The notes below the pieces were generated by a model that worked only from the letters and a program-made list of their open reading frames with translations, searched no databases and was not told the origin of the DNA. Below are positions 22,854-40,206 of a stretch of DNA of 64,000 bases, piece by piece. Origin of the DNA: Brucella grignonensis (GTDB lineage Bacteria; Pseudomonadota; Alphaproteobacteria; Rhizobiales; Rhizobiaceae); assembly GCF_002252505.1 (NCBI RefSeq), contig NZ_NNRL01000163.1:439981-503980 (forward strand), given 5' to 3'. The position numbers and the translations under genes are program-made. The stretch's first letter is position 1, and the number at the start of each line of letters is the position of its first letter.

Positions 22854-22928
22854 GCTGCGGTAGCTCAGTGGTAGAGCACTCCATTGGTAATGGAGAGGTC
22901 GAGAGTTCAATCCTCTCTCGCAGCACCA
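22854..22928 (+). tRNA. tRNA-Thr (GGT), integration site
   Basis: A full cloverleaf begins GCTGCGGTAGCTCAG, with anticodon arm CTCCA-TTGGTAA-TGGAG (anticodon GGT) and an encoded CCA at 22926-22928. Its last 23 bases form the attL core; the tRNA remains intact after integration. Confidence 0.96.
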
Positions 22929-22929
22929 G
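22906..22929 (+). other. attL core
   Basis: The 24 bases from TTCAATCC to CACCAG, comprising the T-arm end, acceptor 3' strand and CCA of tRNA-Thr plus one base, are repeated exactly at 40183-40206. These mark the left recombination site. Confidence 0.93.
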
Positions 22930-22987
22930 CGCAACCCCCTGAAATCGTTAGAACCCCTTGCGCCATAAGGCGTTTTACCCATATTCA

Positions 22988-23009
22988 TGTCACAAATCGT
23001 GTCACAAAA
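22988..23009. repeat. Candidate integrase arm sites, left
   Basis: Two TGTCACAAA copies lie 12 bases apart (22988 and 23000), just inside attL and before the integrase start. The same motif recurs near attR at 40092-40109. Paired arm sites at both ends are typical for tyrosine integrases; binding is inferred. Confidence 0.5.
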
Positions 23010-24586
23010 TGGGTGTGGGTATGGCGGGCAAAGTTAGGCATCTTAAAGAGCGCAATGGGCGTTATTCAGCCCGGCTCGTCGTTCCGAAGAATCTCAGATC
23101 AATTGTCGGCAAGGCAGAACTCGAAACGCAATTAGGTGCGGATCGACGGCAGGCGCTAATTAAACTGCCAAGTGCTGTTGCGGCGTTACAAGGTCAAATT
23201 GCAATCGCAGAGCAACAGGCAATGCCAAAATCCGGCCCTGTTTCTTTGCGCTTTCCGTTATCGATTGAGCAGATTGCGAACCGGCATTATCAATCGCTAA
23301 TTATCTTTGATGAACAGATACGCCAAAGCGACCCGCGTTTCTCAAACATTGGTTTTGATGACGTATTCGTTGAAAACTTACGTGCCGGGATCGCGGGCCG
23401 CTTAAACGATGACCAGCTAGAAAATCTGGTAGGTGATCGAATTAATCGGTTTCAATTGCTCGGCAATACGGACGTTCAAAAAGGCTCACTGGACTGGCGC
23501 AAGCTGGCGATAGCTCTATGCGTTTCGGAGTATGAAGCCCTTTCACGATCAGCCGAACGCGACGAAGGAATTTTCAACGGAACGCCAGAGCATCCTATGC
23601 TTGTGAAGGCTATCGACGCGCCAGAGCCGCAACAGCCTGTTGACTTGATGGATTTGCTAGACGGCTATGTGAATCAGCTAGAGCGCCAAGGGAAGGGCAA
23701 AGAAGCCCGGAAGCGCTGGACCCCTGTTTTCACTGATTTGATGAAGTTCGTCGGGCATAACGATGCTTTGCGCATTACTGATGATAATATCAGGAATTGG
23801 CGAAACAAGAAGTTGGAAACGCTTGCAGCTAAAACCGTCTCGGACGTTTACATGGCAAGCGTTCGCGCCGTTCTGAATTGGGCAGTTGAAGAAAAGAAAA
23901 TACCGGAGAACCCAACTAAAGGCGTGAAAGTCAAAAAGCCGAAACAAGCGCAGTCTCGTGAAAAGGGCTTTCGCGATGATGAAGCTTTAGCAATCCTCAA
24001 AGCTTGCAGAGCTTACACGCCTATTCATCGAGATAATCCAAGCAATCGGGAATCTGAAAAGATGACCGCTGCAAAGAAGTTTGCTTCAATTTTGTGCGCG
24101 TTCACTGGCGCTCGTATCACCGAAATTATGCAGTTGCGAAAAGAGGACGTGCGCAAGGAAGGAGATATATCGGTGATTAGAATAGCGCCTGATGCGGGAT
24201 CGGTTAAATCTTTCACCTATCGCGATGTTCCTTTGCACCCGCAGATCATCGCAGAGGGCTTTTTAGAATTTGTGGATCGCTCAAAGTCTGGGCCGCTATT
24301 CCATTCCAATACCCCAGATAAAGCTCTCTCAGGTGCGAGAACCGTTGCTGGACGTGTCAGTCAGTGGCTGCATGAGATTAAAGTGATACCGGAAGGGTTA
24401 CAGCCTAACCACGCATGGCGGCATCGTTTCAAAACCATTGGAACAGAACTTGGCGTTTCTCAACGTGTCATTGATGCTATCCAAGGTCACGCAAGCCGAA
24501 CGGCAGGCGAGAACTATGGCGATGTGACCATACTGGCAAAAACTAGAGTTATGACGCAGTTTCCAAGTTACGAATTAGATCAGTAA
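23009..24586 (+). CDS. Tyrosine recombinase (integrase)
   Basis: The 525-residue integrase has an N-terminal KVRHLKERNGRYSARLVVPKNL domain, a core-binding region around 250-330, and a C-terminal catalytic domain. Visible catalytic residues are R369 (GARITEI), the HAWRHRF box and the nucleophile Y503 in ENYGDV. I start at MGVGMAGK (23009); an in-frame ATG at 22958 would translate the sequence beside the att site, and an ATG at 23021 is possible. It should insert and excise the element at the tRNA-Thr 3' end. Confidence 0.92.
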   Translation: MGVGMAGKVRHLKERNGRYSARLVVPKNLRSIVGKAELETQLGADRRQALIKLPSAVAALQGQIAIAEQQAMPKSGPVSLRFPLSIEQIANRHYQSLIIFDEQIRQSDPRFSNIGFDDVFVENLRAGIAGRLNDDQLENLVGDRINRFQLLGNTDVQKGSLDWRKLAIALCVSEYEALSRSAERDEGIFNGTPEHPMLVKAIDAPEPQQPVDLMDLLDGYVNQLERQGKGKEARKRWTPVFTDLMKFVGHNDALRITDDNIRNWRNKKLETLAAKTVSDVYMASVRAVLNWAVEEKKIPENPTKGVKVKKPKQAQSREKGFRDDEALAILKACRAYTPIHRDNPSNRESEKMTAAKKFASILCAFTGARITEIMQLRKEDVRKEGDISVIRIAPDAGSVKSFTYRDVPLHPQIIAEGFLEFVDRSKSGPLFHSNTPDKALSGARTVAGRVSQWLHEIKVIPEGLQPNHAWRHRFKTIGTELGVSQRVIDAIQGHASRTAGENYGDVTILAKTRVMTQFPSYELDQ

Positions 24587-24691
24587 AATTGATTTATTAA
24601 GCAATAATAATCAAAAATATTGATATTTAGGATTCACAACGATTCTCGTTTGTGAGAGAATAAGCCATGTTCAAAAGCATGGTTTGAAGTT

Positions 24692-25915
24692 GTGTTGAGT
24701 AAAAGTTTTGGCCGCGTATTTAAGGCAATAGGTTTTTCAATGGATCGGAAGGCATATAAGCTTTCCGATCCCGATGCTTATTCACTGTTCGGATTAACGC
24801 CTACCGTCTCAGGCTCTAATGTTAGTGGCAACAATGCCATTAATGTTCCAGCCGTCTTACAGGCTGTTCGCCTTATCTCTGAAAATATCGGCTCACTGCC
24901 ATGCAAGTTTTATCACGATGATGAACTAGGCAAAACAGCCACTAAAGATCACCCGGTATTCAAGATCGTTCACAACCGGGCTAACGGCTGGACAAGCGCA
25001 GGGCAGCTACGCACCGATCTAACGAAAGACGCGCTTATTCATGGCGGCGGCTTTGCAAAGGTTATTCGCTATCCAGACGGCAGACCATATGAGTTGGTAC
25101 GCCTAAAGCCCGGCACCGTTTCCGTTCTTGAAGATAGCCTTGCAGATTTGCCGCCAGTGTATCGTATCACTGAAGCAAGCGGCACCGTTGATTATCCGCA
25201 CACCGAAATTCTGCATATCAAGCCTTTTGGTGACAGATCACCCGTATCATATGGCCGCGAAGCGATTGGCCTATCTGCTACGCTGGAGCGCCACGGCTCT
25301 AAGTTTTTTGGATCAGGTACGCGGGCAAGCTGCATTATCTCGAATGATAAACCGCAGGCAACCACACTCGGCGCAACCGCAATTGCCAACGTCAAGAAAT
25401 CCTATCTCGCTTGGCAGTCTGGTCAAACGAATGAACCGCTAATTCTGGACGCTGGATTTAAGGCCGAATATCCGGCTATGACCTCGACCGATGCGCAGTA
25501 TCTCGAAAATCGCGTTTTCCAGATTGATGACATTGCCCGCATTTTTGGCGTTCCGTCTACCATGTTGTTTGAGCTTACACGCGGCACATGGGCGAACACG
25601 GAAGAAATGGCCCGTTCGTTCATGCAGCTTTGCTTGCGCCCTTGGCTCGACCGCTGGCAGGACGCTTATTCGACAGTGTTGCTCACAGAAGATGAGCAAG
25701 ACGCGCACAGCTTTGAATTTGTCATTGATGACCTACAACGCGCCGATGCATCCGCCCGCGCCGAAATCTTCAACAAGCTGATCGCTGCCCGCGTCATGAC
25801 CCCTAATGAGGTCCGCGCCACCATGAACATGCAGCCACTACCCGGCGGCGATGAGTTGGCGAACCCCTACACCACAACCAGCCCGAAGGCAGATTCCGCA
25901 AAGGATGAAACCTAA
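24692..25915 (+). CDS. HK97-type phage portal protein
   Basis: The 407-residue protein has NVPAVLQAVRLISENIGSLPC, then a central DALIHGGGFAKVIR and HIKPFGDRSPVSYGREAIG, and the late IFGVPSTMLFE, all typical of HK97 portals. The portal ring is the DNA entry channel of the capsid. It starts with a GTG; an ATG at 24740 is an alternative. Unusually it directly follows the integrase; terminase genes come 5 kb later. Confidence 0.88.
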   Translation: MLSKSFGRVFKAIGFSMDRKAYKLSDPDAYSLFGLTPTVSGSNVSGNNAINVPAVLQAVRLISENIGSLPCKFYHDDELGKTATKDHPVFKIVHNRANGWTSAGQLRTDLTKDALIHGGGFAKVIRYPDGRPYELVRLKPGTVSVLEDSLADLPPVYRITEASGTVDYPHTEILHIKPFGDRSPVSYGREAIGLSATLERHGSKFFGSGTRASCIISNDKPQATTLGATAIANVKKSYLAWQSGQTNEPLILDAGFKAEYPAMTSTDAQYLENRVFQIDDIARIFGVPSTMLFELTRGTWANTEEMARSFMQLCLRPWLDRWQDAYSTVLLTEDEQDAHSFEFVIDDLQRADASARAEIFNKLIAARVMTPNEVRATMNMQPLPGGDELANPYTTTSPKADSAKDET

Positions 25916-26085
25916 TGAGAACGGATGAAGAGCGCCTCGCAGATGTCTTACAGGCACGAACAGCGAAGCTTGAACGCGATATGATGCGCGGCAAGAATGC
26001 TCATGATGCGAAGGCGTATCAGGAAGCGAAACAGAAGCTTTTTGATGATGCGCAAGCGAACATGCAACGCTTGGTGAACCGATAA
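25915..26085 (+). CDS. 56-residue protein matching the tape measure N-terminus
   Basis: The start overlaps the portal stop by one base and the stop overlaps the next start by one base, so it is tightly packed into the operon. The protein reads RTDEERLADVLQARTAKLER, then DMMRGKNAHDAK. Its first 28 residues closely match the tape measure protein's start (TDEERLSIVLQAKVDKLERD, then MQRGKNA). The rest is a charged helix. It may be a scaffold-like factor or a duplication of the tape measure N-terminus; no family is recognised. Confidence 0.75.
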   Translation: MRTDEERLADVLQARTAKLERDMMRGKNAHDAKAYQEAKQKLFDDAQANMQRLVNR

Positions 26086-26465
26086 TGATCACCGCGTTCA
26101 TTGGCGACAAAGAGCGCCAGCTTAAAATCATACCAGAGCATATTGCAGAACTCGAAAAGCTGACAACCTCGGCTATCGGCGTTTTATATACCCGCGTTCT
26201 TAATGCAGCTTTTAGCTATGGCGACTTGATCACGATTATCCGGCTCGGACTGATCGGCGGCGGCACGAGCGAACAAGAAGCACTTCACCTCACCGAAACA
26301 TATATCAAGCCACGCCCAATCATGCAGACCCTGCCAATTGCGCTAGACCTCATGGAATTGGTTTGGAGCGGTGAAGTCCTATCAGATGCGCCCGACAACG
26401 CGGCAGACGATGAGGAAAGCTTGCGGGCCGCTATAAATGATGCGCTTGAACAGGTAGCACCATGA
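26085..26465 (+). CDS. GTA gp10-like tail assembly chaperone
   Basis: The 126-residue protein resembles the gp10 family of Rhodobacter-type gene transfer agents: a helix LKIIPEHIAELEKLT, then ITIIRLGLIGGGTSEQEA and a late TYIKPRPIMQTLPIALDLM. In the family this sits in the tail module; here it lies between portal and capsid genes. It suggests that the element makes, or once made, a tail. Confidence 0.7.
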   Translation: MITAFIGDKERQLKIIPEHIAELEKLTTSAIGVLYTRVLNAAFSYGDLITIIRLGLIGGGTSEQEALHLTETYIKPRPIMQTLPIALDLMELVWSGEVLSDAPDNAADDEESLRAAINDALEQVAP

Positions 26466-28003
26466 ACGAACGCCTCGAAATCAAAGCGGCCTTTTCTGTC
26501 ACCGATACGGGCGAAATTAGCGGCCTTGCATGGCCTTTCGGTTCCGCTGATCGCGTAGGCGACCAGATCGAACAAGGCGCATTCAAAGCAATGCCTACAA
26601 CCCTGCCAATGCTGTTTGCGCACGATCAGACGCAAGTTGTCGGGGTATGGGATCAGATCGCGGAAACCTCGGACGGCCTATCAGTTAAAGGCCGCTTGCT
26701 GATTGATGACGTTGAACGTGCGCGTGAAGTTCGCGCCATGATCCGCGCCAAAGCAGTCACCGGCCTTTCTATCGGCTTCCAGACTAAGAAAGCCGCACCG
26801 TTGCGCAACGGGCGCAGCATCACAGCCCTTGAGTTGCATGAAATCTCTATCGTTCCGGTTCCTTGTCACCCCGGCGCGAAAATCACTTCATTGAAGGCCG
26901 TTGGTGATGCGGCATTAGATATTTCCAAGGAACAAAAAATGGAAAACCTGAATACCGAAACCGCACCGGAAGCCAAGGCAGACCCGGTTATTGATCAGAA
27001 GGCTTTCGACGCAATGAAAGCCCGCCTCGACAATCTGGAGGCAAAGGCGAACCGCCCGCAGCCTTCCAATAACAACCAGCCACGCGCTGTTAATGACAAT
27101 GGTGATGAGCGCAAAGCTTTTGCCGATTACGTGCGCAGCGGACGCATTGAAGAAAAGGCGCTGGCATTCGGCACCCCTTCAACGGGCGGCATTGTCGCGC
27201 CTGATAGCGTCTCGACTTCGATCATCGAAAAGCTGGCTGAATTTTCGCCAATGCGCCAGCTTGCATCATCTATCAGCATGAGCGGCCCGCTTTTGCAGCT
27301 TCCGCGCCTCGTCAATGAAATTGACCCGGAAGAAGTTGGCGAAATGGAAGATCGCCCGGAAGACGAACCAAGCTTTGACCAGATCGACCTAAAGCCGTTT
27401 GAAATGGCTGTTATCGTTCCAGTGACCCGCATTTTGCTTGAAGACGCGCAGATCGATCTTGAGAGCTATCTTTCAGGCCACATTGCCCGCAAATTCGGAC
27501 AGAAAGAAGCATCTTGGTTTGTGAACGGCAATGGCACCACGCAGGCAGAAGGCGTTCTCAAGTCCACTGACATTGTTGCGAAGGAAGTTGAAGCAATCGA
27601 CGCTGACGCGCTGATTGACCTCTTTTATAATATCAAGACCGGCTATTCGCAGCGCGGTGCATGGCTTATGAACCGCTCGACAATGGCGACCGTTCGCAAG
27701 CTTAAAGACACAGACGGCTCTTATTTGTGGCAGCCTTCCATTGCAGCGGACGTTCCACCAACATTGCTTGGCCGTCCGGTATATGAAGCCGTGGACATGC
27801 CAAACGCTGACAAGGAAGCAACGCCTATCGTCTTTGGTGACTTCCAGAGCGGCTACACGATTGCAGATCGCGTTGGCTTCACAACCTTGCGTGACGAACT
27901 CACCGGCGCAGCCAATGGCATTATCAAGCTTCACGCCCGCCGCCGCGTAGGTGGTCGAGTGACGATTGGTGAAGCGCTGACAAAACTCAAGATCGCAGCC
28001 TAA
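26462..28003 (+). CDS. Prohead protease-major capsid fusion (HK97 type)
   Basis: The 513-residue protein has an S78-type protease in residues 1-150 (GLAWPFGSADRVGDQI, LFAHDQTQVVG, ELHEISIVPVPCHPGAKI). A charged linker around 160-210 follows (EAKADPVIDQ and NRPQPSNNNQPRAVND). Residues 220-513 are an HK97-type capsid (GGIVAPDSVSTSIIEKLAEFSPMRQL, IVPVTRILLEDAQIDLESYL, WFVNGNG). Fusions of this kind occur in some phages and satellites. Protease action should free the mature capsid subunit. Confidence 0.88.
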   Translation: MNERLEIKAAFSVTDTGEISGLAWPFGSADRVGDQIEQGAFKAMPTTLPMLFAHDQTQVVGVWDQIAETSDGLSVKGRLLIDDVERAREVRAMIRAKAVTGLSIGFQTKKAAPLRNGRSITALELHEISIVPVPCHPGAKITSLKAVGDAALDISKEQKMENLNTETAPEAKADPVIDQKAFDAMKARLDNLEAKANRPQPSNNNQPRAVNDNGDERKAFADYVRSGRIEEKALAFGTPSTGGIVAPDSVSTSIIEKLAEFSPMRQLASSISMSGPLLQLPRLVNEIDPEEVGEMEDRPEDEPSFDQIDLKPFEMAVIVPVTRILLEDAQIDLESYLSGHIARKFGQKEASWFVNGNGTTQAEGVLKSTDIVAKEVEAIDADALIDLFYNIKTGYSQRGAWLMNRSTMATVRKLKDTDGSYLWQPSIAADVPPTLLGRPVYEAVDMPNADKEATPIVFGDFQSGYTIADRVGFTTLRDELTGAANGIIKLHARRRVGGRVTIGEALTKLKIAA

Positions 28004-28005
28004 AC

Positions 28006-28641
28006 ATGAGAACGCAGCCCGCAAATGCTTTGAACATAGTGACGGCTTTAAAACCCTCATTGCGGGCTGCATTGCGTCTCACGCAGGAATTTGGCGACCT
28101 TGAGAAAGTCTTAGCTGATATTCTCGAAGGCAAGCTTGAAACACTGGCGAAAATTATCCTAATCGCCAGTGGCAGCGAAAACCACGCTAAATTCCTGCAT
28201 GAGATTGCAACACATGGCGCAAAGCAAATTCCAGCTTTGCAGCCTTATTTCGTTACATTCATTCATGGCCTGATTGCGGACATTCCGGCGATGCGTGACG
28301 TATCACCCGCAACAGCAGATGCGCCGCAACACAAAGCCTCAAACAAAACACCCCAAACGCCAGCCGAATATTATCAGCGTTTATTCCAGATCGGCACCGG
28401 CGTTCTCGGATGGACACCTTTAGACACATGGAACGCCACACCGACAGAAATCGTCCTGGCTTATCAAGGTCGCACCGAATTTATCGCGGACATTCTGAAA
28501 TCCGTATTCGGCACCTCAGAAGATACCGGCCCGCAGATCGACAAGATCGACAAAGAAAGTCTCGAAACCCTTATCGCCAGCGGCAGGCAAGACCCGACCT
28601 TTGATCGCGCAGGACTGCAAGCACTAAGGGAAGCGCTATGA
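28006..28641 (+). CDS. Probable tail assembly chaperone of fused type
   Basis: A 211-residue protein whose first part, ALRLTQEFGDLEKVLADI, loosely resembles the gp10-type chaperone. Its second part (about 125-165) reads YYQRLFQIGTGVLGWTPLDT then WNATPTEIVLAYQGR, matching the small gp10.1-type family (rcc01693-like). In gene transfer agents these two pieces are neighbouring genes; here they appear joined. It follows the capsid gene by two bases. Assignment rests on motif resemblance. Confidence 0.6.
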   Translation: MRTQPANALNIVTALKPSLRAALRLTQEFGDLEKVLADILEGKLETLAKIILIASGSENHAKFLHEIATHGAKQIPALQPYFVTFIHGLIADIPAMRDVSPATADAPQHKASNKTPQTPAEYYQRLFQIGTGVLGWTPLDTWNATPTEIVLAYQGRTEFIADILKSVFGTSEDTGPQIDKIDKESLETLIASGRQDPTFDRAGLQALREAL

Positions 28642-28973
28642 GCAAGCCCGCTTATCTATGCGTATGTGGCAAGGTAGTGCCGGGCAACACCCGTTGCGAG
28701 TGCCAGATTATCAATGATCGCAGGCGCAGGGATCGCCACGACCGCAAACGCCCGAACGCCTCACAGCGCGGATATAATCGCGAGTGGCGTGAAGCAAGAG
28801 CCTTATTCCTGCAAGCATTCCCGAAGTGCCGTTGTGGTGAGCCTGCAACCGTTGTTGATCATATCATTCCACACAAAGGCAACATGAAACTCTTTTGGAA
28901 CCGTGCCAACTGGCAACCCCTTTGTGAGCATTGCCATAACTCATGGAAGCAAAAGCAGGAGCGCCAGCAATGA
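28638..28973 (+). CDS. HNH endonuclease
   Basis: The 111-residue protein has two zinc-binding Cys sets (CVCG..CEC) and an HNH box with VVDHIIPHKGN, NRANWQPLCEHCHNSWK. HNH proteins beside terminases support DNA cutting during packaging. Here it lies about 2 kb before the terminase genes and overlaps its neighbours by four bases on each side. Confidence 0.9.
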   Translation: MSKPAYLCVCGKVVPGNTRCECQIINDRRRRDRHDRKRPNASQRGYNREWREARALFLQAFPKCRCGEPATVVDHIIPHKGNMKLFWNRANWQPLCEHCHNSWKQKQERQQ

Positions 28974-29428
28974 CACCAGCCGACACGCTCACCTTTGACA
29001 ACACTACACAGCCTATCACCGAATGGGCGCTCGATTACGGGATCACAGCCAAGATCATCATTGACCGCCTCAATCGTGGCTGGACAGCAGAGCAAGCAAT
29101 AACAATCCCGATGCATGTAGCACCTAAACAAAGGCTTATATCGCCGGAACTGAAGAAATATATCCACCGCAGACCTCGCCTAAAAAGATCAGCAAACAAA
29201 GATAATCCGGTCAAGAAACGTAAAATAAAAACGATCGATGCATTCGGTGAAAGTAGATCAATTGAGCAATGGTCTAAGTTAGTAGGCATAAGTTATAAGA
29301 TAATAATGCTTAGATTGTGTGAAGGGATTGAAATCGAAGATGCTTTGACAATGCCTTTGAAGCCAAAGGGAAGAAAGAAAGTAAAGGTCAATGTATCTAG
29401 TGAGGCCGGGGGTGGCAAAGAACTTTAG
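28970..29428 (+). CDS. Protein with two helix-turn-helix-like repeats
   Basis: The 152-residue protein contains two similar units: ITEWALDYGITAKIIIDRLNRGW with EEQ-type tail (EQAITIPM), and IEQWSKLVGISYKIIMLRLCEG with EDALTMPL. Each looks like a HTH in a form seen in phage DNA-binding proteins. The middle is very basic (KKRKIKT). It overlaps HNH by four bases and may be a small regulator or nuclease partner. The 3' half is clearly more AT-rich than the neighbouring genes. Confidence 0.6.
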   Translation: MTPADTLTFDNTTQPITEWALDYGITAKIIIDRLNRGWTAEQAITIPMHVAPKQRLISPELKKYIHRRPRLKRSANKDNPVKKRKIKTIDAFGESRSIEQWSKLVGISYKIIMLRLCEGIEIEDALTMPLKPKGRKKVKVNVSSEAGGGKEL

Positions 29429-29506: not shown

Positions 29507-29818
29507 ATGAGTATCGTATCTGTTAATTTACTTGTGTCACAGTTGAACCTTTTAGGCGCTGAAATCGACGCCGAATTTCTTCAACATAAGATCGATGCGG
29601 CAGAGAGCTTTATCCAAGCCTACATTGGCCGCAAATTCTCGGACATTCCAGAAGTCGGCGCAGACCTCAAAGAAGCGGTGTTGCAGCTTGCAGCGCACCT
29701 TTATGAGCATCGCGAAGCTGTTCTAATCGGCGTTAATGCGAACGAACTGCCATATGGCGTAGGTGAAATGATCCGCCATTATCGTCTCGAATGGTTTGGA
29801 GAAGATCATGGTGAGTGA
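29507..29818 (+). CDS. Head-tail connector, gp6-like
   Basis: The 103-residue protein has the DNA-packaging connector layout: VNLLVSQLNLLGAEID, AAESFIQAYIGRKF, and ELPYGVGEMIRHYR. It forms the ring under the portal. The ribosome site is weak. A 78-base gap before it contains no gene. Confidence 0.8.
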   Translation: MSIVSVNLLVSQLNLLGAEIDAEFLQHKIDAAESFIQAYIGRKFSDIPEVGADLKEAVLQLAAHLYEHREAVLIGVNANELPYGVGEMIRHYRLEWFGEDHGE

Positions 29819-30245
29819 TCTTGACCGGATTTTGGGGAAGATGGACCGCATAACAAGCGCCACAAAAGAGGCCGTTAAGCCCGCCCTTATCAAATCAGCG
29901 AATGAGATTGCCAGCTTGCAACGCGCCCTTGCGCCAGTTGAAACAGGCGACCTCAAGAACTCTATCTCTATCACCGGCCCCAACGAACCGACACCCGCAT
30001 ATTCACAACCGGGCGGCTCACGCATGGCTGGACCAGATGAGACGATTATCACGGCGGGCAATTCAGACGTTCGTTATCCGCACCTTGTCGAATACGGCAC
30101 CTCGGAAGCCGATGCGCAGCCGTTCTTTTGGCCCGGTTACTACCTCGGACGCGACAAAGCCAAGCGCCGCATAAAAGCAGCAGCACGAAAGGCTATTCGC
30201 GAAACTTGGAACAACAACAAGCCCGGAGGTGACAGTGATGTTTGA
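29808..30245 (+). CDS. HK97 gp10-like neck/tail-completion protein
   Basis: The 145-residue protein has NEIASLQRALAPVETGDLKNSIS and VRYPHLVEYGTSEADAQPFFWPGY, the pattern of gp10-type proteins that join head and tail. Start at 29808 chosen because TTGGAGAAG precedes it; it overlaps the connector gene. Its C-terminus is basic. Confidence 0.83.
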   Translation: MVSDLDRILGKMDRITSATKEAVKPALIKSANEIASLQRALAPVETGDLKNSISITGPNEPTPAYSQPGGSRMAGPDETIITAGNSDVRYPHLVEYGTSEADAQPFFWPGYYLGRDKAKRRIKAAARKAIRETWNNNKPGGDSDV

Positions 30246-30654
30246 ACCTACACTGGCACTACAGACCGCTATTCGCGCCCGCCTAATCATGAAGCCGGAA
30301 CTGACGGCGCTTGTGCCTGCAAACAATATCCGCAGCGGCGCAACCAGACCAGACACCACGCCAAGCATTATCATCGCAGACGGCACCACGTCATTGCATG
30401 GTTATGACTATACCGCACAGCGTTGCGCGTGGGTAAATCTTGACCTGCATATCTGGACGCTCGATAGCGAACAAGACTTGGTAAAGCAGATCACCGGCGA
30501 AGTTATGGCCGCGCTAGACAAGCAAAGTTTGAACATTGAAGGCGGCTATTGCGACCATTTCAGGCCCACTAGCACCCGCTTTATGCGTGACCCCGATCCA
30601 GCTTACGGCCACGCTGTTCTATCCGTTGAAGCCCTTGTTAGGTGGTTCGTGTGA
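30238..30654 (+). CDS. DUF3168-type tail terminator
   Basis: The 138-residue protein has ALQTAIRARLIMKPELTALV, SIIIADGTTSLHGYD and WVNLDLHIWT, as in DUF3168 proteins that cap the tail tube. A GGAGGTGACAG ribosome site precedes the ATG at 30238. Its presence implies interaction with a tail, though no tail tube gene is found nearby. Confidence 0.78.
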   Translation: MFEPTLALQTAIRARLIMKPELTALVPANNIRSGATRPDTTPSIIIADGTTSLHGYDYTAQRCAWVNLDLHIWTLDSEQDLVKQITGEVMAALDKQSLNIEGGYCDHFRPTSTRFMRDPDPAYGHAVLSVEALVRWFV

Positions 30655-30968
30655 TGCAGTCCGGTAAACTAGATCGACAGATCACAATTGAGCGCCAGAC
30701 TGAAACCGTCTCACCGTCTGGATCGGTTCGCAAAACGTGGCAAATCATTGCAACGTTGCGCACTGAGATCGTGCAGCAATCCGCAACCGAGTTTCTAACC
30801 GGCTTCGGAGAGGCGGAGAGTGGCACAATTATTTTCCGCACCCGATACCTTGCAGGGATCACAACCGCAGACCGCATTATCTATGAAGGCGGCAATTACA
30901 ATCTCAAGGAGATTAAAGAGATAGGCAGGCGGCGCGGGCTTGAGCTAAGGGGAGTTGCGACCCGATGA
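30654..30968 (+). CDS. Phage head-tail adaptor
   Basis: A 104-residue protein with SGKLDRQITIERQTE at the N-terminus and YEGGNYNLKEIKEIGRRRGLELRG at the end, the usual head-tail joining (stopper) pattern. Its ATG overlaps the previous TGA, and its end overlaps the small terminase start. Confidence 0.85.
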   Translation: MQSGKLDRQITIERQTETVSPSGSVRKTWQIIATLRTEIVQQSATEFLTGFGEAESGTIIFRTRYLAGITTADRIIYEGGNYNLKEIKEIGRRRGLELRGVATR

Positions 30969-32965: not shown

Positions 32966-35623
32966 ATGGCTATTACAGATGAAGAACGCCTTTCAATCGT
33001 ATTGCAGGCGAAAGTTGATAAGCTTGAGCGCGATATGCAGCGCGGTAAAAATGCGGTTCGCAGGAACACGAAAGACATGGAAACCGCTGCAAAACGATCA
33101 GCGGATAACATGGAGAAGTCTTTCGCCAATTCAGGCAGCAAGATCGCAGAGAAACTACAGCTTGCGTTCAAGCCAATTCTTGCAGGTGGTGCAATTGCAG
33201 CCGCTGCAACGGCCTTTAAGCAGATCGCGGGAACAATCGCAGAAGTGGGCCGTGAAGCTGATAAGGCGCGTGTTTCAACTAAAATCTGGCAACAGTGGAC
33301 CTATGTTGCAAAAGCTACAGGCGCGTCAATCGACGGCGTGACCGATGCACTCAAGGAACTGAACATTCGCGGTGATGAGTTTGTTCAAACTGGCAAAGGT
33401 GGCGCAGCCGAAGCATTTGAAAGGCTCGGTTATACTGCCTCGGACGTGGCGGAACGCCTGAAAGACCCTTCCGCATTCCTTGATGAAATTATCGGCAAGC
33501 TGCAAAAGATGGACAAGGCGGCACAGGCGCGAAACCTTGATGAGCTATTCGGCGGCACTGGCGCGGAAGAGCTTTCCAAGATGCTTGGTTTGTCCGTAGA
33601 TCAGATAAAAAAACTTCGGAGTGAAGCCGCTCTATTCACTGACGAACAGATTGAATCTGCCAAAAAAGTTGATGCTGAATTTGAAACGCTATGGCGCAAC
33701 GTGCAAGTTTACGCAAAGCAAGCTGCCCTTGAGAGCCTGTCATATATGGACAAGCTTATAAACGCTATCTCATGGATTAAGGGCGATAGCTACATTTCCA
33801 ATGTTCGCGATAAGGCAATTCAGGATTACAACAATCGCCAGAACTCACCGGAATACAAGGCGCAGCAGCTAAACAAGCTATATAAAGAGCGCCAGATTAT
33901 TCTTGATAAGATCGCAGAGCTTGAATCAAAATCTGATTTTGATGATGCGATCGACGGCCTTGCGGTTCAACGGTTGAAAGATGATCTTGCAGCTTTAAAC
34001 AGCAAGATCACCGAACTATCGCCAAGCACAAATACGCTCACCACGGCTATTCAGGATGCAGGAAATTCATTCAACAGCAGCGCCAGCGCAGCAGCCAATT
34101 TCAAATCAGCGCTCACCGATTTGAAATCAATGGTGCCAGAGCTTAAAGCTGAATTGGATGAACTGGCGAAGCTGGACGCTATTGACGCGGCTTTTGAAAA
34201 AGCCGTGAAGAATGCCAAAACGCCAGCCGATATTGAGACTGCGAACCGTATCAGGGACCGCGCCCGTACGGTTGCGCAGTATGGCGTTCAGAAAGATATG
34301 CTCGGACTGATCGGCGCAGCCGAAGGCACCGACAAAGGCCGTGGCTATAACGAGACGCTTGGATATGGAAAATTCACCGGCGGCAATCGCAACCTTACTG
34401 CAATGACACTTAATGAAGTCATGGCGCTGCAAAAGCAGATGCTGGCGCACCCGGATAACACTTTCAATTCGTCGGCACTTGGACGCTACCAGATCACGCG
34501 CCAGACCTTGCAGGACTTCATGCCTCGCCTTGGTTTGGCAGGGGATCACCTATTCGACCAGAACACGCAGGATGCGATTGCTCAGGCAATTCTAGCCTCG
34601 ACGGGTGGCAGCGTTGAAAAGCTTCGCGGACGTTGGGAGGGATTGCGCAATGTTGATGCTGGCACGATCAGCGCTGCCTATGGCGGCACACAAACGGTTC
34701 CTGACAAGATTGCACCGTCCGAAAGCCAGCAGAAAGCCGCAGACGATGCGAAACGCGCCACAGAAGCCCGCCAGCAGCTAAACGATAGTTTGCGCGAAAG
34801 TCAGAGCCTTGCGGAAGTAGAACGCCGCACAGTGGGATTATCTGCGCAGCAAAGGCAAATCGAATTAGAGGTGTTCCAGCGTATTCAGGCCGCAAAGCGT
34901 TCCGGCGTGAATTTGTCAGATCAGGAAATCCAGAAAATCCGCGAACAGGTGGCAGCTACAGCCGGACTACGAGCGGAAACCGAACGCTTGCAGACTGACA
35001 TGCAGAACGCCGATCAAGCCAAAATGTTCTTTGCGCAGAGCTTCACGCAGTCATTAAGCGGCCTAATCACGGGAACAACCAGCCTATCAGATGCGGTTAA
35101 AAACTTAGCGAACAGTCTCATGGATGCTGTTTTGCAAGCTGCATTGCTTGGACAAGGCCCGCTTGCTTCATTGTTTGGCGGCGGTTCCGGCATCCTCGGC
35201 AGCATATTAGGCTTCGCAGACGGCGGTTATACCGGGCGCGGCGGCAAGCATGAACCGGCAGGCGTGGTGCATAAGGGCGAATATGTCATGAGCGCAGCAG
35301 CCGTTAAGCGGCTTGGCGTGAAAAACCTCGAAGCCCTTCACGTCAACGCCAAGCGTGGCTATGCGGAAGGCGGTTATGTAGACCGCACGGCCTTTGCGCG
35401 TCCGGCTGGCATGAACACAACAAATATGACGAACAACGCGCCAGCCTTCAATATTTCCGCACCTGTCACCGTGAATGCATCAGGCGGCACACCTGAACAG
35501 AACGCCGATCTTGCAAAGCAGACCTCAAAGGCGATGGAAGCGACAATGAGAAGCGTGGTTGCTGATGAAATTGCAAGGCAGCGCCGCCCCGGTAACATGC
35601 TCAATAATCGTGGACGGAATTGA
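32966..35623 (+). CDS. Tape measure protein with internal lysozyme-like domain
   Basis: The 885-residue protein has a coiled N-terminus, an Ala-rich hydrophobic stretch near 70-85 and long helices. A lambda-R-like muramidase segment lies at about 446-560 (IGAAEGTDKGRGYNETLGYG, SSALGRYQITRQTL). The C-terminus has the typical tape measure end (FADGGYTGRGGKHEPAGVVH, then EYVMSAAAVKRLG). Such proteins set tail length and help DNA entry through the cell wall. No tail tube gene accompanies it in the element. Confidence 0.83.
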   Translation: MAITDEERLSIVLQAKVDKLERDMQRGKNAVRRNTKDMETAAKRSADNMEKSFANSGSKIAEKLQLAFKPILAGGAIAAAATAFKQIAGTIAEVGREADKARVSTKIWQQWTYVAKATGASIDGVTDALKELNIRGDEFVQTGKGGAAEAFERLGYTASDVAERLKDPSAFLDEIIGKLQKMDKAAQARNLDELFGGTGAEELSKMLGLSVDQIKKLRSEAALFTDEQIESAKKVDAEFETLWRNVQVYAKQAALESLSYMDKLINAISWIKGDSYISNVRDKAIQDYNNRQNSPEYKAQQLNKLYKERQIILDKIAELESKSDFDDAIDGLAVQRLKDDLAALNSKITELSPSTNTLTTAIQDAGNSFNSSASAAANFKSALTDLKSMVPELKAELDELAKLDAIDAAFEKAVKNAKTPADIETANRIRDRARTVAQYGVQKDMLGLIGAAEGTDKGRGYNETLGYGKFTGGNRNLTAMTLNEVMALQKQMLAHPDNTFNSSALGRYQITRQTLQDFMPRLGLAGDHLFDQNTQDAIAQAILASTGGSVEKLRGRWEGLRNVDAGTISAAYGGTQTVPDKIAPSESQQKAADDAKRATEARQQLNDSLRESQSLAEVERRTVGLSAQQRQIELEVFQRIQAAKRSGVNLSDQEIQKIREQVAATAGLRAETERLQTDMQNADQAKMFFAQSFTQSLSGLITGTTSLSDAVKNLANSLMDAVLQAALLGQGPLASLFGGGSGILGSILGFADGGYTGRGGKHEPAGVVHKGEYVMSAAAVKRLGVKNLEALHVNAKRGYAEGGYVDRTAFARPAGMNTTNMTNNAPAFNISAPVTVNASGGTPEQNADLAKQTSKAMEATMRSVVADEIARQRRPGNMLNNRGRN

Positions 35624-35680: not shown

Positions 35681-36139
35681 GTGCAACCTCAACAATTATT
35701 CCCACTTCCTTATGAGCGTGGTTTGCAGCTTCGTCAGATTGCAGAAACTAAACAAACCACGCCTTCCGTTTTGCTTTTAGGATTGATCAAGCAAGCTATA
35801 GCTGACGGCATCATATCGCCAGACATTCCAGAGTTTCATATAGCGCACGTTAAAAGCGACGATGCGTTCCTGATTGGCTTCGGTGATGATCCAAAAGAAA
35901 AAATGAGCCGCGAGATCGCAGAGCAATTAAGCGATGCTATTTTTAGCGCCGCGACCTCGCAGGACAAATTCCAAGACATGCAAATCGATAGGCACTTCGT
36001 TGTGTCGCGTAAAACGAGCGGCGTTCGTGTGACGATCCCGGCTAATGGAATGACACGATCTTATAACCGCGACTTAGCAATCGATATAGCAAAGCAAATA
36101 GACCGCGCTATCGATGCGATTGAAGATCAACAAGAATAA
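35681..36139 (+). CDS. Hypothetical protein with possible ribbon-helix-helix N-terminus
   Basis: The 152-residue protein starts with a GTG directly after a palindrome. Its first 45 residues (LPYERGLQLRQIAETKQTTPSVLLLGLIKQ) could form a strand-helix-helix DNA-binding unit. The rest (SDDAFLIGFGDDPKEKMSRE, VRVTIPANGMTR) is not recognised. Because no CI-like repressor exists in the element, this may be its regulator of replication or of the late genes; that is inference. Confidence 0.55.
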   Translation: MQPQQLFPLPYERGLQLRQIAETKQTTPSVLLLGLIKQAIADGIISPDIPEFHIAHVKSDDAFLIGFGDDPKEKMSREIAEQLSDAIFSAATSQDKFQDMQIDRHFVVSRKTSGVRVTIPANGMTRSYNRDLAIDIAKQIDRAIDAIEDQQE

Positions 36140-36207: not shown

Positions 36208-36232
36208 AATAGTAAACTAGGAGAAGAGCAAA

Positions 36233-37516
36233 GTGCCTTGTGCTCTTAATGAAGATAATACGATAGAATTAGTTTGGGATCAACTTAATTCTGTTCAAAG
36301 AGTGGAAACTATAGATAATCGAACAGCGTTGCTTTTAGCATCACTTGACGATCTTTTAGATGATCCAGAGTCGGAGTTAGATCAAAAGCCAATTGAAGGA
36401 ATTTTGACGCCTTCAATCGAAAGCCTTTTTCCCCTTTCAAATGATAAGTTTGAAGGAAATTTGACGCTTACGGATGATGAGATTGAGCAACTTTTCGACA
36501 CTACAATTGAAGGAAAAATGACGCCTGAAATTGACCCGTCAAAATTCCTGAACCGCGAAGCTGAAAAATCAGAAATTATTCAACAAAATCAATGCGAAGA
36601 TACCGGCACCGATGCATTTCAACCAGTATCAGAAAATAACACCTCTTTTACTCCCTATAACGAAGTAGAAGAAATAGAGAAATTAGCACTATTAGAAATC
36701 GCCAGCGGCGCGGCAAATCTAACCACCCGTCAAAATTCCTTCAATTCAAAACCACACGGCGAACAGCGCCCGCAATTGCCCGCCACTTCAACCAGCACCC
36801 TCTATGGCGCTTTTGGTGATTATGAAGATGCACCGCAACAAAGCAGGGCAATTGCTGGCAGCGCCAAGCCAACACCATACACCGTTGCCCGCGACCATTC
36901 TCTAGCCACCTACCCGGACAGGAAGGGGCTTAAACACTTCCTTGCACCTGAAAACCTAACAGACCCATTTCAACACAGATGGAAAAGCCTCACCGACAGG
37001 AAACGCAAATTCGTTCTTGCCTCAATGCAGGCGCATGAACAGAACGGTTGGTTTTTCAGCTTAGACTTTCATGAGGACCGCGTTGCAGAGCTTTTGAAAT
37101 CATCATCCCCGGCAATGCTCTTTGCAGATAGGCACCTCAAGAAACGCTTACTTGAGTGTTTTGGCTACGTTCCGGCAATCGCACTAGCGCTTGAGTTTGA
37201 CAGCAAAGGCAAGCTTCACACGCATGGTCTATGCATCCCGGATATGGAGAAACCAGACCCTGATTTTAAAGATAAGCTGGCAGAGGCTTTGCGCTTATCT
37301 GCGTCACGTATTTACAGACGCAAGGCACTCTATCCAACCCTTGCAAACGTGAAGCCTATCGCAGAGCCGCTTGGCTTGGCCGAATATATCCTCAAGGACG
37401 TATCCCGGACAACGAAGAAACTAAACACAGACGACAAAGGGGCTACTTACATAAGCACTGAAATGAAGAATATGAATAAAAATTACCATGATACTATCAG
37501 GTCGATTATTAATTGA
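36233..37516 (+). CDS. HUH-type replication initiator (Rep)
   Basis: The 427-residue protein has an HUH-like metal motif KGKLHTHGL (H329, H331) and a downstream YILK (Y385, K388), the YxxK tyrosine arrangement of rolling-circle initiators. The first 120 residues contain three similar short units (IEGILTPS, FEGNLTLT, IEGKMTPE) repeating every 19 residues, encoded by the direct repeats described separately. It starts with a GTG behind AGGAGAAGA. It should nick the element's origin and start replication after excision. Family naming beyond HUH is not possible from sequence alone. Confidence 0.72.
   Translation: MPCALNEDNTIELVWDQLNSVQRVETIDNRTALLLASLDDLLDDPESELDQKPIEGILTPSIESLFPLSNDKFEGNLTLTDDEIEQLFDTTIEGKMTPEIDPSKFLNREAEKSEIIQQNQCEDTGTDAFQPVSENNTSFTPYNEVEEIEKLALLEIASGAANLTTRQNSFNSKPHGEQRPQLPATSTSTLYGAFGDYEDAPQQSRAIAGSAKPTPYTVARDHSLATYPDRKGLKHFLAPENLTDPFQHRWKSLTDRKRKFVLASMQAHEQNGWFFSLDFHEDRVAELLKSSSPAMLFADRHLKKRLLECFGYVPAIALALEFDSKGKLHTHGLCIPDMEKPDPDFKDKLAEALRLSASRIYRRKALYPTLANVKPIAEPLGLAEYILKDVSRTTKKLNTDDKGATYISTEMKNMNKNYHDTIRSIIN
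36393..36746. repeat. Iteron-like repeats inside rep
   Basis: A 19-base motif of the form TTGAAGGAAWWWTGACGCC occurs at 36393, 36450 and 36507, exactly 57 bases apart. The inverted motif occurs completely at 36728-36746 (CGTCAAAATTCCTTCAATT) and in part at 36537-36549. Regular phasing and mixed orientation are typical of initiator binding sites. Because 57 bases is 19 codons, the spacing also yields a protein repeat, so both roles must be considered. Confidence 0.7.
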
Positions 37517-37524
37517 AGTAAAAA

Positions 37525-37569: not shown

Positions 37570-37656
37570 TATAGATGCTATTGCAAAGCGAATAAAACTA
37601 TTCCTATTACTGGACGGCAGCGCCGAAGCGCACCGCTTTTAACAGGAGTAGAACTT

Positions 37657-38136
37657 ATGACAGTTACAGCTTTTCTCTCGCAGGAACACAGAAACGAAGT
37701 TGCTGGCCTCACACTGGCAGCAATCGCAGCGCTTACAAAAGCCGCCGCCTATCTGCCAGCCAACACACATGCAGACACATTCAAAGACATTCTCGGAAAC
37801 GCAGAGCGCACAGAGTTGCTCGACGTAGCATTCCGGCACCTCACCGCGCACGATCAGACCCTAGCAAATGCTTTGTTAGAAGTGGCTAGTGACCAGCAGC
37901 TAGAATCCACACAGCGAGTCACTGAATCGCTTGATTCAGATATGGCGCATTCCGCTATTGAAGTTGATGAGAGGGCTTGGCGGGCTTGTATGGCGGAAAT
38001 TAAGGCGATTATCACCGCGCCTTACAATGGTGGCGCAGGAATTGGCTATGATCCGTTAGGTGAGATCAGCTTGGCGCTGACGAAACACTTGAATGTTGTT
38101 CCCGGTAGTGGGGCAGAGTGCCAGAGTGCAGCTTGA
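37657..38136 (+). CDS. Hypothetical protein, element cargo
   Basis: The 159-residue protein begins MTVTAFLSQEHRNEVAGLTL, has an Ala-rich helical middle and an acidic stretch (SAIEVDERAWRACMAEIKAI). The ribosome site AACAGGAG is good. No domain is recognised and no signal or membrane segment is seen. It follows the candidate origin and may be part of element maintenance or cargo. Confidence 0.55.
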   Translation: MTVTAFLSQEHRNEVAGLTLAAIAALTKAAAYLPANTHADTFKDILGNAERTELLDVAFRHLTAHDQTLANALLEVASDQQLESTQRVTESLDSDMAHSAIEVDERAWRACMAEIKAIITAPYNGGAGIGYDPLGEISLALTKHLNVVPGSGAECQSAA

Positions 38137-38483: not shown

Positions 38484-38963
38484 ATGAACGACATTAACAC
38501 CCCGGCAACTGAAACTGCAATGATTGAAGACTTTCGCTTACAGTTGATCACGGTCAATGGACTTGCGGCTGGTCTCATGGTTAGCGCTGATTATTTTAAA
38601 AAAGAGATCGAAAAGCACGGCTTAGACAACGATCTATCAATCCTTAGCGTTGCCAAAAATCTTTGCGATGTGGTCGCGGAAGAGGTGATAAACACTTCGA
38701 ATGATGATTTATTGTTTATGCAATATTCTAATATGGTGTCTGGCTTCACTGATGAACAAATAAAAGCCTTTTATTGGGCAAAGATCGGTTATCAGGATCG
38801 GCTTGCAACATTGTTCGTTCCGCACACAGCAGCGCATTTTTTTCGCGATATGATTGCAATGGCGTTTGCAATTTACAGCTTACATTCGCCTGCTACAGAT
38901 TCGGACGTTGGTGAAAGCTGGTTTCCATTTGATAGAACAACCGCAAATCAGGCTGCGATATGA
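38484..38963 (+). CDS. Hypothetical helical protein, element cargo
   Basis: The 159-residue protein is mainly helical and acidic (MNDINTPATETAMIEDFRLQ; EIEKHGLDNDLSILSVAKNL) with a late VPHTAAHFFRDMIAMAFAIY segment that is hydrophobic but too polar for a clear membrane span. The ribosome site ACAGGAG is good. It lies near the attR side, where satellites often carry cargo genes; no function can be named. Confidence 0.55.
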   Translation: MNDINTPATETAMIEDFRLQLITVNGLAAGLMVSADYFKKEIEKHGLDNDLSILSVAKNLCDVVAEEVINTSNDDLLFMQYSNMVSGFTDEQIKAFYWAKIGYQDRLATLFVPHTAAHFFRDMIAMAFAIYSLHSPATDSDVGESWFPFDRTTANQAAI

Positions 38964-39015
38964 AGTTATTTAGCGCAGGAGTCTGATCGATTGTTTTAGG
39001 AGAAGCCTTACAAAT

Positions 39016-39039
39016 GCCCCCACCATAATGCGTGGGGGC
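39016..39039. terminator. Probable terminator between convergent cargo genes
   Basis: GCCCCCAC (39016-39023) pairs with GTGGGGGC (39032-39039), giving a strong 8-bp stem between the plus-strand 38484 gene and the minus-strand pair. The T-tracts on both sides are short. Confidence 0.6.
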
Positions 39040-39046
39040 TATATCT

Positions 39047-39445
39047 TCAAATCGGGCGCGCATAGTCGCCAACTACAGCCTCAATAGTAAGTCTGGTTGA
39101 GTCACGGACCTCTTCAACTTCCTCTACGGTATCCCCATTACCTAAAAGCATATACCCGAACTCCTTACGGCGTATTGTTCTTTTAGGGCCGGTTGTTACT
39201 TCAAATTCGTTGCTAATTAGAGTGCTGAATTTTTCCTGAACATGGTCGGCTTTTGCTCGGCCACGAACTATTTCTAGAACTCCTAAATCTTCACCTGTAT
39301 CTGGATCAGATATTTTTTCACCTAATGAGAATACTAGAAACAAGTCACCAGGTTTAATTCCGTGATCTAGTCCGCGATTAATTACTATTTTATATTCATC
39401 AAGAACGGTTACTACCTTTGGTGTCTTTCCGTATTCATCACTCAT
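39047..39445 (-). CDS. Small protein resembling the FlgT C-terminal fold
   Basis: The 132-residue protein has INRGLDHGIKPGDLFLVFSL, then DPDTGEDLGVLEIVRGRAKA and ADHVQEKFSTLIS. The pattern 'GIKPGD, TGE, LG, kfS' resembles the C-terminal domain of FlgT and related beta-barrel modules. No flagellar genes are near. It follows the membrane protein on the same strand with a 4-base overlap and is likely its partner. The GC content is much lower than the host flanks, suggesting recent transfer. Confidence 0.55.
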   Translation of the reverse strand: MSDEYGKTPKVVTVLDEYKIVINRGLDHGIKPGDLFLVFSLGEKISDPDTGEDLGVLEIVRGRAKADHVQEKFSTLISNEFEVTTGPKRTIRRKEFGYMLLGNGDTVEEVEEVRDSTRLTIEAVVGDYARPI

Positions 39446-39966
39446 TCTGGCTTTCTCCGATACAGTCCGGGGCGTATTAAAAGATCATTACGGTGATTTT
39501 TTAATATATTATCGCTTTCCGCTTTCGATGAATCATTTGTATAATCACTTTTCACGACTTGTATTTGTACGTTCTTGTTATTCTGTACGTTTATAACTTC
39601 ACCAACGCATAAAAGTACTTCAAAATCATCTTTTAATACGTGTATTGAAGTCATTACGCCCATACTAAGCCAAGGTGCATTTTCAACAAGAAGTATTACA
39701 TTCCCATTTTTTTGATCCATCACCTTTTTTACTGCTGGATTTTTCATATATTCAGGAGGTTTTCTTTCTAGAATATACCAGCCCATATACAGAATTATTT
39801 CCAGTTGAAAGGCGATAAAAAGCAGTTGGTACTTATTATTTAACGCCCATTCGAGATTGCCAAATAGGGCATAGATTCCAGCGAAGCCAGCGATTACTGC
39901 AAAAATACCACCCAACACTTTAATGTGCGCTAAAACTGTAGACTTAATTTTATAAATGTCCGCCAC
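39442..39966 (-). CDS. Two-span membrane protein, cargo partner
   Basis: The 174-residue protein has two N-terminal hydrophobic spans (about 15-32 and 46-64, VLGGIFAVIAGFAGIYALF and LLFIAFQLEIILYMGWYIL) followed by a soluble C-terminal half. It is the first gene of the minus-strand pair next to attR; its AT content is high. No family is recognised. A two-gene unit of membrane protein plus small beta domain in a satellite cargo site is reminiscent of anti-phage cassettes, but that is only a hypothesis. Confidence 0.6.
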   Translation of the reverse strand: MADIYKIKSTVLAHIKVLGGIFAVIAGFAGIYALFGNLEWALNNKYQLLFIAFQLEIILYMGWYILERKPPEYMKNPAVKKVMDQKNGNVILLVENAPWLSMGVMTSIHVLKDDFEVLLCVGEVINVQNNKNVQIQVVKSDYTNDSSKAESDNILKNHRNDLLIRPGLYRRKPE

Positions 39967-40091
39967 AAATAATCTCGAATCGCGATTAATTCCCCATCTC
40001 TAATGGCACTACCCTCTAGTGTTTGGTCAAGCTTCTCAATTTGGGATTGCGCATTTATTATCCACAGGCTCAAATGTCCCATTTTATACCC

Positions 40092-40109
40092 CGTCACAAT
40101 GTCACAAAG
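40092..40109. repeat. Candidate integrase arm sites, right
   Basis: CGTCACAAT followed by TGTCACAAAG in the 40092-40109 stretch matches the TGTCACAAA pair found just inside attL. It lies about 75 bases inside attR. Confidence 0.5.
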
Positions 40110-40182
40110 TTATAAATTAGTTAGCCCTAATAAGATAATAAAAACAACGGTTTGAAACGCCATTGCGAGAGAGTATCGACAA

Positions 40183-40206
40183 TTCAATCCTCTCTCGCAG
40201 CACCAG
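40183..40206 (+). other. attR core
   Basis: An exact 24-base copy of the tRNA-Thr 3' end (TTCAATCC to CACCAG), preceded by a degenerate T-arm-like stretch (GAGAGAGTATCGACA). It marks the right edge of the element. Confidence 0.93.

What the first reader, a model, noticed from the sequence alone, without database searches (positions are those of the whole stretch)
22906..40206. Compact element with head, packaging and tape measure genes but no tail tube, lysis or repressor
The element combines an HK97-type head, both terminase subunits, an HNH nuclease, tail terminator, two tail chaperones and a tape measure protein with an HUH replication initiator. The tail tube, tip, fibres, lysis cassette and CI-like repressor are absent. 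Terminases follow the head genes. This resembles the capsid-forming satellites known from other bacteria, here in a Brucella/Ochrobactrum-like host. It may use a helper phage tail, or be a reduced prophage in which the tail genes were lost. Keeping a tape measure protein argues that some tail is still built or modified.
Basis: partly seen in the sequence, partly recalled or inferred. Interest (0 to 1): 0.78.

Follow-up and report, generated by a model that had tools for sequence, protein, structure and literature searches.

The report
Capsid-making satellite with its own tail ruler
This 17.3-kb piece of DNA looks like a phage satellite that makes its own virus head and its own tail-length ruler but probably borrows the rest of the tail from another phage, and many similar elements sit in related bacteria.

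Summary
A 17.3-kb element (22906-40206) sits in tRNA-Thr between 24-bp repeats; 3 of 35 same-genus genomes show the empty site. It has integrase, portal, protease-capsid fusion, connectors, HNH, both terminases, two tail-assembly chaperones, an 885-aa tape measure protein (TMP) with a lysozyme domain, and an HUH-type Rep. No tail tube, tip, lysis or repressor gene was recognised.

It is not a prophage that lost its tail in one strain. Of 108 dereplicated loci with TerL at 52% identity or more, 103 have the TMP directly behind TerL; of 88 held on both sides, 87 have a chaperone, and none matched tube, distal-tail or tip profiles from same-genus prophages at E<=0.01. In 43 of 119, att repeats span 16.5-18.9 kb. 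Among 50,697 phage records the best-ranked terminases are only 32-35% identical.

Best reading: a capsid-forming satellite that builds a chimeric tail from its own TMP, chaperones and terminator plus a helper's tube and tip. That mechanism was shown for Vibrio PLEs in 2026, and a legend in that paper mentions cf-PICIs with putative tmp. So: a new variant of a known kind. Helper, excision and particles are untested.

The parts
22854..22928 (+). tRNA-Thr(GGT), integration target
   Evidence: ARAGORN and Rfam
22906..22929 (+). attL, 24-bp direct repeat copy inside the tRNA 3' end
   Evidence: exact repeat; empty site in 3 of 35 same-genus genomes
22958..24586 (+). tyrosine integrase
   Evidence: PF00589 E 2e-7, phrog_1 E 3e-31
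24692..25915 (+). portal
   Evidence: PF04860 E 2e-77
25915..26085 (+). 56-aa ORF resembling the N-terminus of the TMP
   Evidence: 53% over TMP residues 4-50, E 6e-5; as a separate gene labelled only in the window and in L186, an IMG/VR contig with identical TerL
26085..26465 (+). tail assembly chaperone, GTA-gp10 type
   Evidence: PF11836 Phage_TAC_11 E 3e-18; helical model pLDDT 90; viral-library matches named tail assembly chaperone
26462..28003 (+). prohead protease fused to HK97 major capsid protein
   Evidence: PF04586 E 2e-20 and PF05065 E 6e-71
28006..28641 (+). tail assembly chaperone with a C-terminal TAC_6 domain
   Evidence: PF09550 E 3e-5, phrog_7493 E 4e-17; 44% over 32 aa to a 63-aa gene just before the TMP of a prophage region
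28638..28973 (+). HNH endonuclease
   Evidence: PF01844, phrog_2323 E 7e-25
28943..29428 (+). accessory protein similar to an HNH-endonuclease family; variable position in relatives
   Evidence: phrog_3377 E 2e-14; maps
29507..29818 (+). head-tail connector (gp6/Ad1)
   Evidence: PF05135, phrog_40
29796..30245 (+). HK97 gp10-like neck / tail completion
   Evidence: PF04883, phrog_5
30229..30654 (+). tail terminator (gp17 type)
   Evidence: PF11367 E 4e-15, phrog_176
30642..30968 (+). head closure Hc1
   Evidence: PF05521 E 1e-17, phrog_25
30965..31375 (+). terminase small subunit
   Evidence: PF05119, phrog_83 E 1e-23
31368..32963 (+). terminase large subunit
   Evidence: PF03354/PF20441, phrog_9 E 2e-133
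32966..35623 (+). tape measure protein, 885 aa, with a lysozyme domain about 438-574
   Evidence: phrog_10574 E 4e-85; residues 445-574 are 60% identical to Sinorhizobium phage tail lysozymes; dN/dS about 0.13 with dS near saturation
35681..36139 (+). unknown 152-aa protein, recurrent after the TMP in relatives
   Evidence: no Pfam match above cut-off and no PHROG; profile hits in 60 of 201 loci
36233..37516 (+). HUH-type replication initiator (Rep)
   Evidence: conserved H-x-H-G and Y-x-x-K; model and fold search
37657..38136 (+). unknown
   Evidence: only weak Pfam matches below cut-off
38484..38963 (+). unknown
   Evidence: no family
39047..39445 (-). unknown, FlgT C-terminal-like
   Evidence: PF16538 E 1e-4, below cut-off; phrog_27728, unknown function
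39442..39966 (-). unknown
   Evidence: no NCBIfam or PADLOC hit at E<=0.01; no PHROG among the two families that I can assign to it
40183..40206 (+). attR, 24-bp direct repeat copy

Best explanation
A phage satellite of the capsid-forming kind that also supplies the ruler of its tail. Proposed cycle: the integrase excises the element at tRNA-Thr; the HUH Rep replicates it; TerS/TerL with HNH package about 17.3 kb into a head made from its own portal and protease-capsid fusion; its own connectors, closure and terminator finish the neck. A helper siphophage supplies major tail protein, tip and fibres. The satellite's TMP, held by its two chaperones, is taken into the helper's tip complex through its C-terminal part, helper tube protein polymerises along it, and the satellite's terminator caps that tail so that it fits the satellite head: a chimeric tail whose length and head end are set by the satellite. 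The helper also lyses the cell; the TMP's lysozyme domain may open the wall at entry. Shown here by sequence: gene content, precise integration, conservation of TMP and chaperones, no recognisable other tail gene. Inferred: helper dependence, the chimeric tail, rolling-circle replication, the C-terminus as the helper contact.
For: Precise att and empty site. 103 of 108 dereplicated relatives (TerL >=52%, more than 2 kb held to the right) have a TMP behind TerL; of the other five, four contigs end within 2.8 kb and one (L156) lacks it. tac6-type chaperone in 87 of 88 loci with more than 8 kb left and 2 kb right of TerL. In 70 genome-contig loci TMP and chaperones co-occur (51 both, 8 TMP only, 3 chaperone only, 8 neither; p 0.00016); tblastn finds both ends of a TMP in the 3 chaperone-only loci, so these look like losses of my ORF overlap filter. 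dN/dS of the TMP about 0.13, against 0.18 for the capsid and 0.16 for TerL. Tube, distal-tail and tip profiles from same-genus prophage regions hit nothing in that clade at E<=0.01, while PHROGs name such genes in two of those regions. TMPs of two same-genus prophage regions (L270, L280) and of L269 are 39-41% identical to residues 640-805 here. 43 att-bounded relatives are 16.5-18.9 kb long, which fits a packaging limit; the search accepted only 12-25 kb in stretches of at most 21.6 kb. Precedent: PLEs build chimeric tails with their own TMP and TAC (PMC12987554).
Against: No helper, excision, particle or read evidence was available. A search of the host assembly with PF05065 shows only two HK97 capsids, this one and that of its gene transfer agent, so no resident HK97-type helper is apparent. 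A very divergent tube protein among the unknown genes cannot be excluded. No repressor, AlpA or primase of the PICI kind was recognised in the window. Some cousins outside the clade do carry a tube or distal-tail gene.
Confidence: 0.66

Rival explanations
1. Ordinary cf-PICI-like satellite that takes complete helper tails; TMP and chaperones act as interference factors that tie up helper tube and tip proteins, not as structural parts.
For: PLE11 Rta shows that a satellite can restrict tail assembly. Loci without a TMP hit exist outside the clade: 9 of 22 at TerL 48-52%.
Against: The TMP is full length (median 882 aa measured from the TerL end, n=100) and comes with chaperones and a terminator, which a mere decoy would not seem to need; PLE tmp deletions cut transduction.
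Confidence: 0.14
2. Reduced or dying prophage that lost tail and lysis genes in this strain.
For: Single-locus view: head and TMP without tube, tip or lysis.
Against: The same gene set recurs with att sites across many genera. The 15 genes compared with the nearest relative have dN/dS of 0.07-0.40 (dS often near saturation). In the phage collection all 2,261 records with a TerL match are below 60% identity, and the 30 best by coverage times identity are 32-35% identical.
Confidence: 0.04
3. The tail donor is the host's gene transfer agent, so this is a satellite of a GTA.
For: The chaperone at 26085 is in a GTA-gp10 family (that TAC_6 is the GTA gp10.1 family is recalled). The TMP matches the RcGTA tape model at residues 660-759 (E 1.5e-6). 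The host has a GTA-like tube, tape and, by order and size, tip genes. Relatives are, by record title, Rhizobiales and Rhodobacterales.
Against: 7 of 35 genomes carrying the element's terminase clade lack a GTA tape gene at E<=1e-10, against 99 of 265 others (p 0.06, confounded by kinship); the nearest relative's host, G025, lacks it. Same-genus prophage TMPs share more sequence. GTA tapes are mostly about 200 aa against 885.
Confidence: 0.06
4. A self-sufficient minimal phage whose tube, tip and lysis genes are too divergent to recognise.
For: Five unknown genes remain (35681, 37657, 38484, 39047, 39442); cousins L090/L094 carry a tube gene and L076/L164/L081 a distal-tail-like gene.
Against: Four of the five unknown genes have profile hits in only 1-5 of 201 loci; only 35681 is common (60 loci). 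No tip profile hit at E<=0.01 in any of 201 loci.
Confidence: 0.1

Closest known systems
Capsid-forming PICIs (cf-PICI; Alqurainy et al. 2023, not held here, known through passages of citing papers)
   Same: Integrase, HK97 head, portal, protease, connectors, HNH and both terminases in a small integrative element without tail tube, tip or lysis
   Different: Adds TMP and two chaperones; protease-capsid fusion; HUH Rep; no AlpA/Stl recognised. A legend in PMC12987554 says that a sampling of cf-PICIs encode putative tmp; which ones could not be seen
PICI-like elements (PLE) of Vibrio cholerae
   Same: Own TMP and TAC with helper-supplied tube and baseplate: chimeric tail
   Different: PLEs remodel helper capsids and use a contractile-tailed lytic phage; here the head is self-made and the homologous prophage tails look siphophage-like
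RcGTA-type gene transfer agents
   Same: HK97 head, a related chaperone family, a weakly related TMP domain
   Different: GTA has the full tail and a short tape; this element has integrase, att sites and Rep
Satellite-plasmid cf-PISP of Vibrio (PMC13230959)
   Same: Own head and packaging genes, no tail genes
   Different: Episomal; the word 'tape' does not occur in its main text

Membership tests
cf-PICI | Small integrative element with integrase and att repeats | tested here: met
cf-PICI | Own capsid, protease, portal and head-tail connectors | tested here: met
   definition from a passage of PMC10690885
cf-PICI | Own TerS, TerL and HNH | tested here: met
cf-PICI | No tail genes, whole tail taken from the helper | tested here: not met
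   TMP and two chaperones present; tube, tip, fibres not recognised. Some cf-PICIs are said to have putative tmp
cf-PICI | PICI regulation and replication genes (Stl/AlpA, primase-type Rep; recalled) | tested here: not met
   no regulator family in the window; Rep is HUH-like
cf-PICI | Capsid falls in a known cf-PICI radiation | not tested
   reference sequences not at hand
cf-PICI | Induced and mobilised by a helper phage | not testable with these tools
   needs induction experiments
Chimeric-tail satellite (as PLE) | Encodes TMP and TAC but not the whole tail | tested here: met
Chimeric-tail satellite (as PLE) | Satellite TMP is in the particle and needed for transfer | not testable with these tools
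   needs particles
PLE | Remodels a helper capsid instead of encoding one | tested here: not met
   own HK97 capsid
Defective prophage | Relatives are complete prophages with the same head genes | tested here: not met
Gene transfer agent | Full tail module, no integrase or att | tested here: not met

The most novel reading that the evidence does not exclude
An old, Alphaproteobacteria-wide satellite lineage in which the tail ruler, its chaperones and the terminator belong to the satellite while tube and tip are borrowed, with cousins that hold none, TMP only, TMP plus tube, or TMP plus a distal-tail gene: a natural series in which satellites gain or lose tail autonomy gene by gene, and the ruler decides which tails fit satellite heads.
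Probability: 0.5. Interest if true: 0.75.

Novelty: new variant of a known kind. Interest (0 to 1): 0.62.

Why it matters
[quoted passage not shown] Here is a large, non-Vibrio family in which a self-made head goes with a self-made ruler, at a fixed gene position and apparently under selection. It lets one ask directly why a satellite needs its own TMP: to match its terminator and neck, to set length, to control DNA entry, or to escape tail-targeting defences. The graded cousins could show the order in which tail genes are gained or lost.

Tried and rejected
Reduced prophage: rejected, see rivals. 26085 as a tail tube (Pfam/PHROG description): rejected by its helical model; the PDB library gave no match below E 3, while the viral library gave three matches at E<=0.001, one of them named tail assembly chaperone, and further down both chaperone and 'tail tube' names. 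GTA as helper: co-occurrence p 0.06, left as a rival. A sewage record of 18 kb (MW091529) looked similar but is annotated with a tail module. The cf-PICI definition papers could not be opened by DOI. PADLOC gave no name for six Rep/unknown proteins, and NCBIfam none above its cut-off for ten proteins.

Limits of the counts: scans of 143 non-core ORFs from 16 att-bounded elements show only 25 of 79 PHROG and 25 of 31 Pfam families, so absence of lysis genes in relatives is not fully tested. Of 160 related-loci loci, 158 had a called TerL and 143 stayed after dereplication. The gta10 profile may cross-match tac6, so its 87 of 88 is an upper bound; as best label it appears in 38 of 70 genome loci and 37 of 48 viral loci. 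Loci held are at most 21.6 kb and att pairs were accepted only 12-25 kb apart, so longer elements could not show. Four of the 40 fetched loci had only 15-16-bp repeats and were not counted as att. dS is near saturation. One search's profiles were rebuilt on the larger set.
Full report
What is there. The element runs from 22906 to 40206 in the window (G000:C66). A 24-bp repeat lies at the 3' end of tRNA-Thr(GGT) and at 40183-40206. A query of the two joined flanks matches nearly end to end in G020, G027 and G007, 3 of 35 same-genus genomes, so this is a precise insertion of 17,277 bp. Its GC is 49% against 55% in the flanks. The nearest relative (G025) lies on a contig of the same length, 900,136 bp, as one of Ochrobactrum sp. 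Q0168, and G025 is rated same genus, so the host is Brucellaceae of the Ochrobactrum kind (inference).

Genes. Integrase, portal, 56-aa ORF, chaperone, protease-capsid fusion, chaperone, HNH, accessory gene, four connector/neck/terminator genes, TerS, TerL, TMP, unknown, HUH Rep, two unknowns, and two genes on the other strand. The TMP has a lysozyme domain, 60% identical over residues 445-574 to tail lysozymes of Sinorhizobium phages. The chaperone at 26085 is described by Pfam and PHROGs as a tail tube, but its model (pLDDT 90) is a hairpin and six helices; of its three viral-library matches at E<=0.001 the one with a functional name is a tail assembly chaperone. In the same-genus prophage region L280 its homologue stands between a PHROG-named major tail protein and the TMP; L270 has the same order by size and position. 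The Rep has conserved H-x-H-G and Y-x-x-K and an HUH-like model.

What is missing. The 77 other ORFs of 45 aa or more were scanned against PHROGs: two families, both of unknown function. Profiles of tube, distal tail, two further tail genes and the tip protein, built from three same-genus prophage regions (the host GTA was added for two of the five), gave no hit at E<=0.01 in the window or in the window clade.

Relatives. In 300 related genomes, 92 have a TerL match at E<=1e-20, and 35 (my count from the listing) at about E<=1e-98. I fetched 40 regions; in 16 of them an att repeat of 17 bp or more bounds an element of 16.6-18.5 kb. Of 158 such loci with a called TerL, 143 stayed after dereplication; 108 have TerL at 52% or more and over 2 kb to the right, and 103 of these have the TMP behind TerL. 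Of the other five, four contigs end within 2.8 kb and one, L156, lacks it. Of 88 loci with over 8 kb left and 2 kb right, 88 have portal and HNH, 87 the tac6 chaperone, 85 an integrase, 83 a fused capsid, 31 this Rep, none the GTA tube. Att repeats of 17 bp or more were found in 43 of 119 loci of the clade, in 40 of the 55 held for over 8 kb on both sides; spans are 16,485-18,874 bp (only 12-25 kb was accepted). The repeat finding is not chance: 48 of 66 real pairs against 14 of 330 swapped pairs (shared tRNA sequence may explain some of the swapped hits).

Not a known phage lineage. In 50,697 phage records TerL matches 2,261, all below 60%; the 30 best by coverage times identity are 32-35% identical. 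The capsid behaves alike: 843 records, all below 60%, the 12 listed at 33-38%. None of the 80 listed IMG/VR contigs is longer than 27,054 bp.

Cousins. Outside the clade the picture varies: L090 and L094 carry a tail-tube protein (TerL 44% and 42%), L076/L164 and L081 a distal-tail-like gene behind the TMP (TerL 50% and 49%), L078 a weak tube match below cut-off, and 9 of 22 loci at 48-52% have no TMP hit.

Mechanism. The TMP is conserved (69% to G025, 51-53% to three others) with dN/dS about 0.13 (dS near saturation). Residues 640-805 are 39-41% identical to TMPs of three same-genus prophage-like regions (L269, L270, L280); its N-terminal part resembles TMPs of other phages and prophages (phi2LM21, L278). 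That fits a ruler that must match a borrowed tail tip (C-terminal contact with the tip is recalled, not from a call). PMC12987554 (passages read) shows that PLEs make chimeric tails, that tmp deletions cut transduction, and says in a legend that a sampling of cf-PICIs encode putative tmp. I therefore call this a new variant of a known kind. Passages were read of PMC12987554, PMC10690885, PMC12409344, PMC13230959 and PMC11389934.

Limits. No experimental data; no helper identified; a search of the host assembly found only one other HK97 capsid, that of its GTA. The GTA-helper idea is weakly tested.

Noticed in passing
window 25915-26085: A 56-aa ORF resembles the TMP N-terminus (53% over residues 4-50) and sits between portal and chaperone; as a separate gene it was labelled only in the window and in L186, an IMG/VR contig with identical TerL. 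Possible duplicate or mimic of the TMP start.
   Followed up: partly
L076 13058-13666 (oriented), L164 13558-14166, L081 13249-13872 (oriented): Cousin elements (L164 is Falsochrobactrum tianjinense) carry a distal-tail-like gene directly behind the TMP.
   Followed up: partly
L090 12956-13501 and L094 6654-7085 (oriented): Cousin elements carry their own tail-tube protein (Phage_tail_2, E 6e-19 in L090).
   Followed up: partly
window 28943-29428 and the HNH-connector interval of relatives: The interval between HNH and the first connector looks like a variable accessory site: ORFs of about 100-440 aa without a common label lie there in relatives.
   Followed up: no
window 39047-39966: Two opposite-strand genes of unknown function at the right end, with profile hits in only 2 and 1 of 201 loci; candidate cargo.
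   Followed up: no
L279 8503-12191 (G029): A different arrangement gp10-TMP-unknown-terminator in a same-genus genome, perhaps another satellite type.
   Followed up: no
L149: A record titled Exiguobacterium profundum MAG carries a family member with a split TMP; the title may be a misassignment.
   Followed up: no
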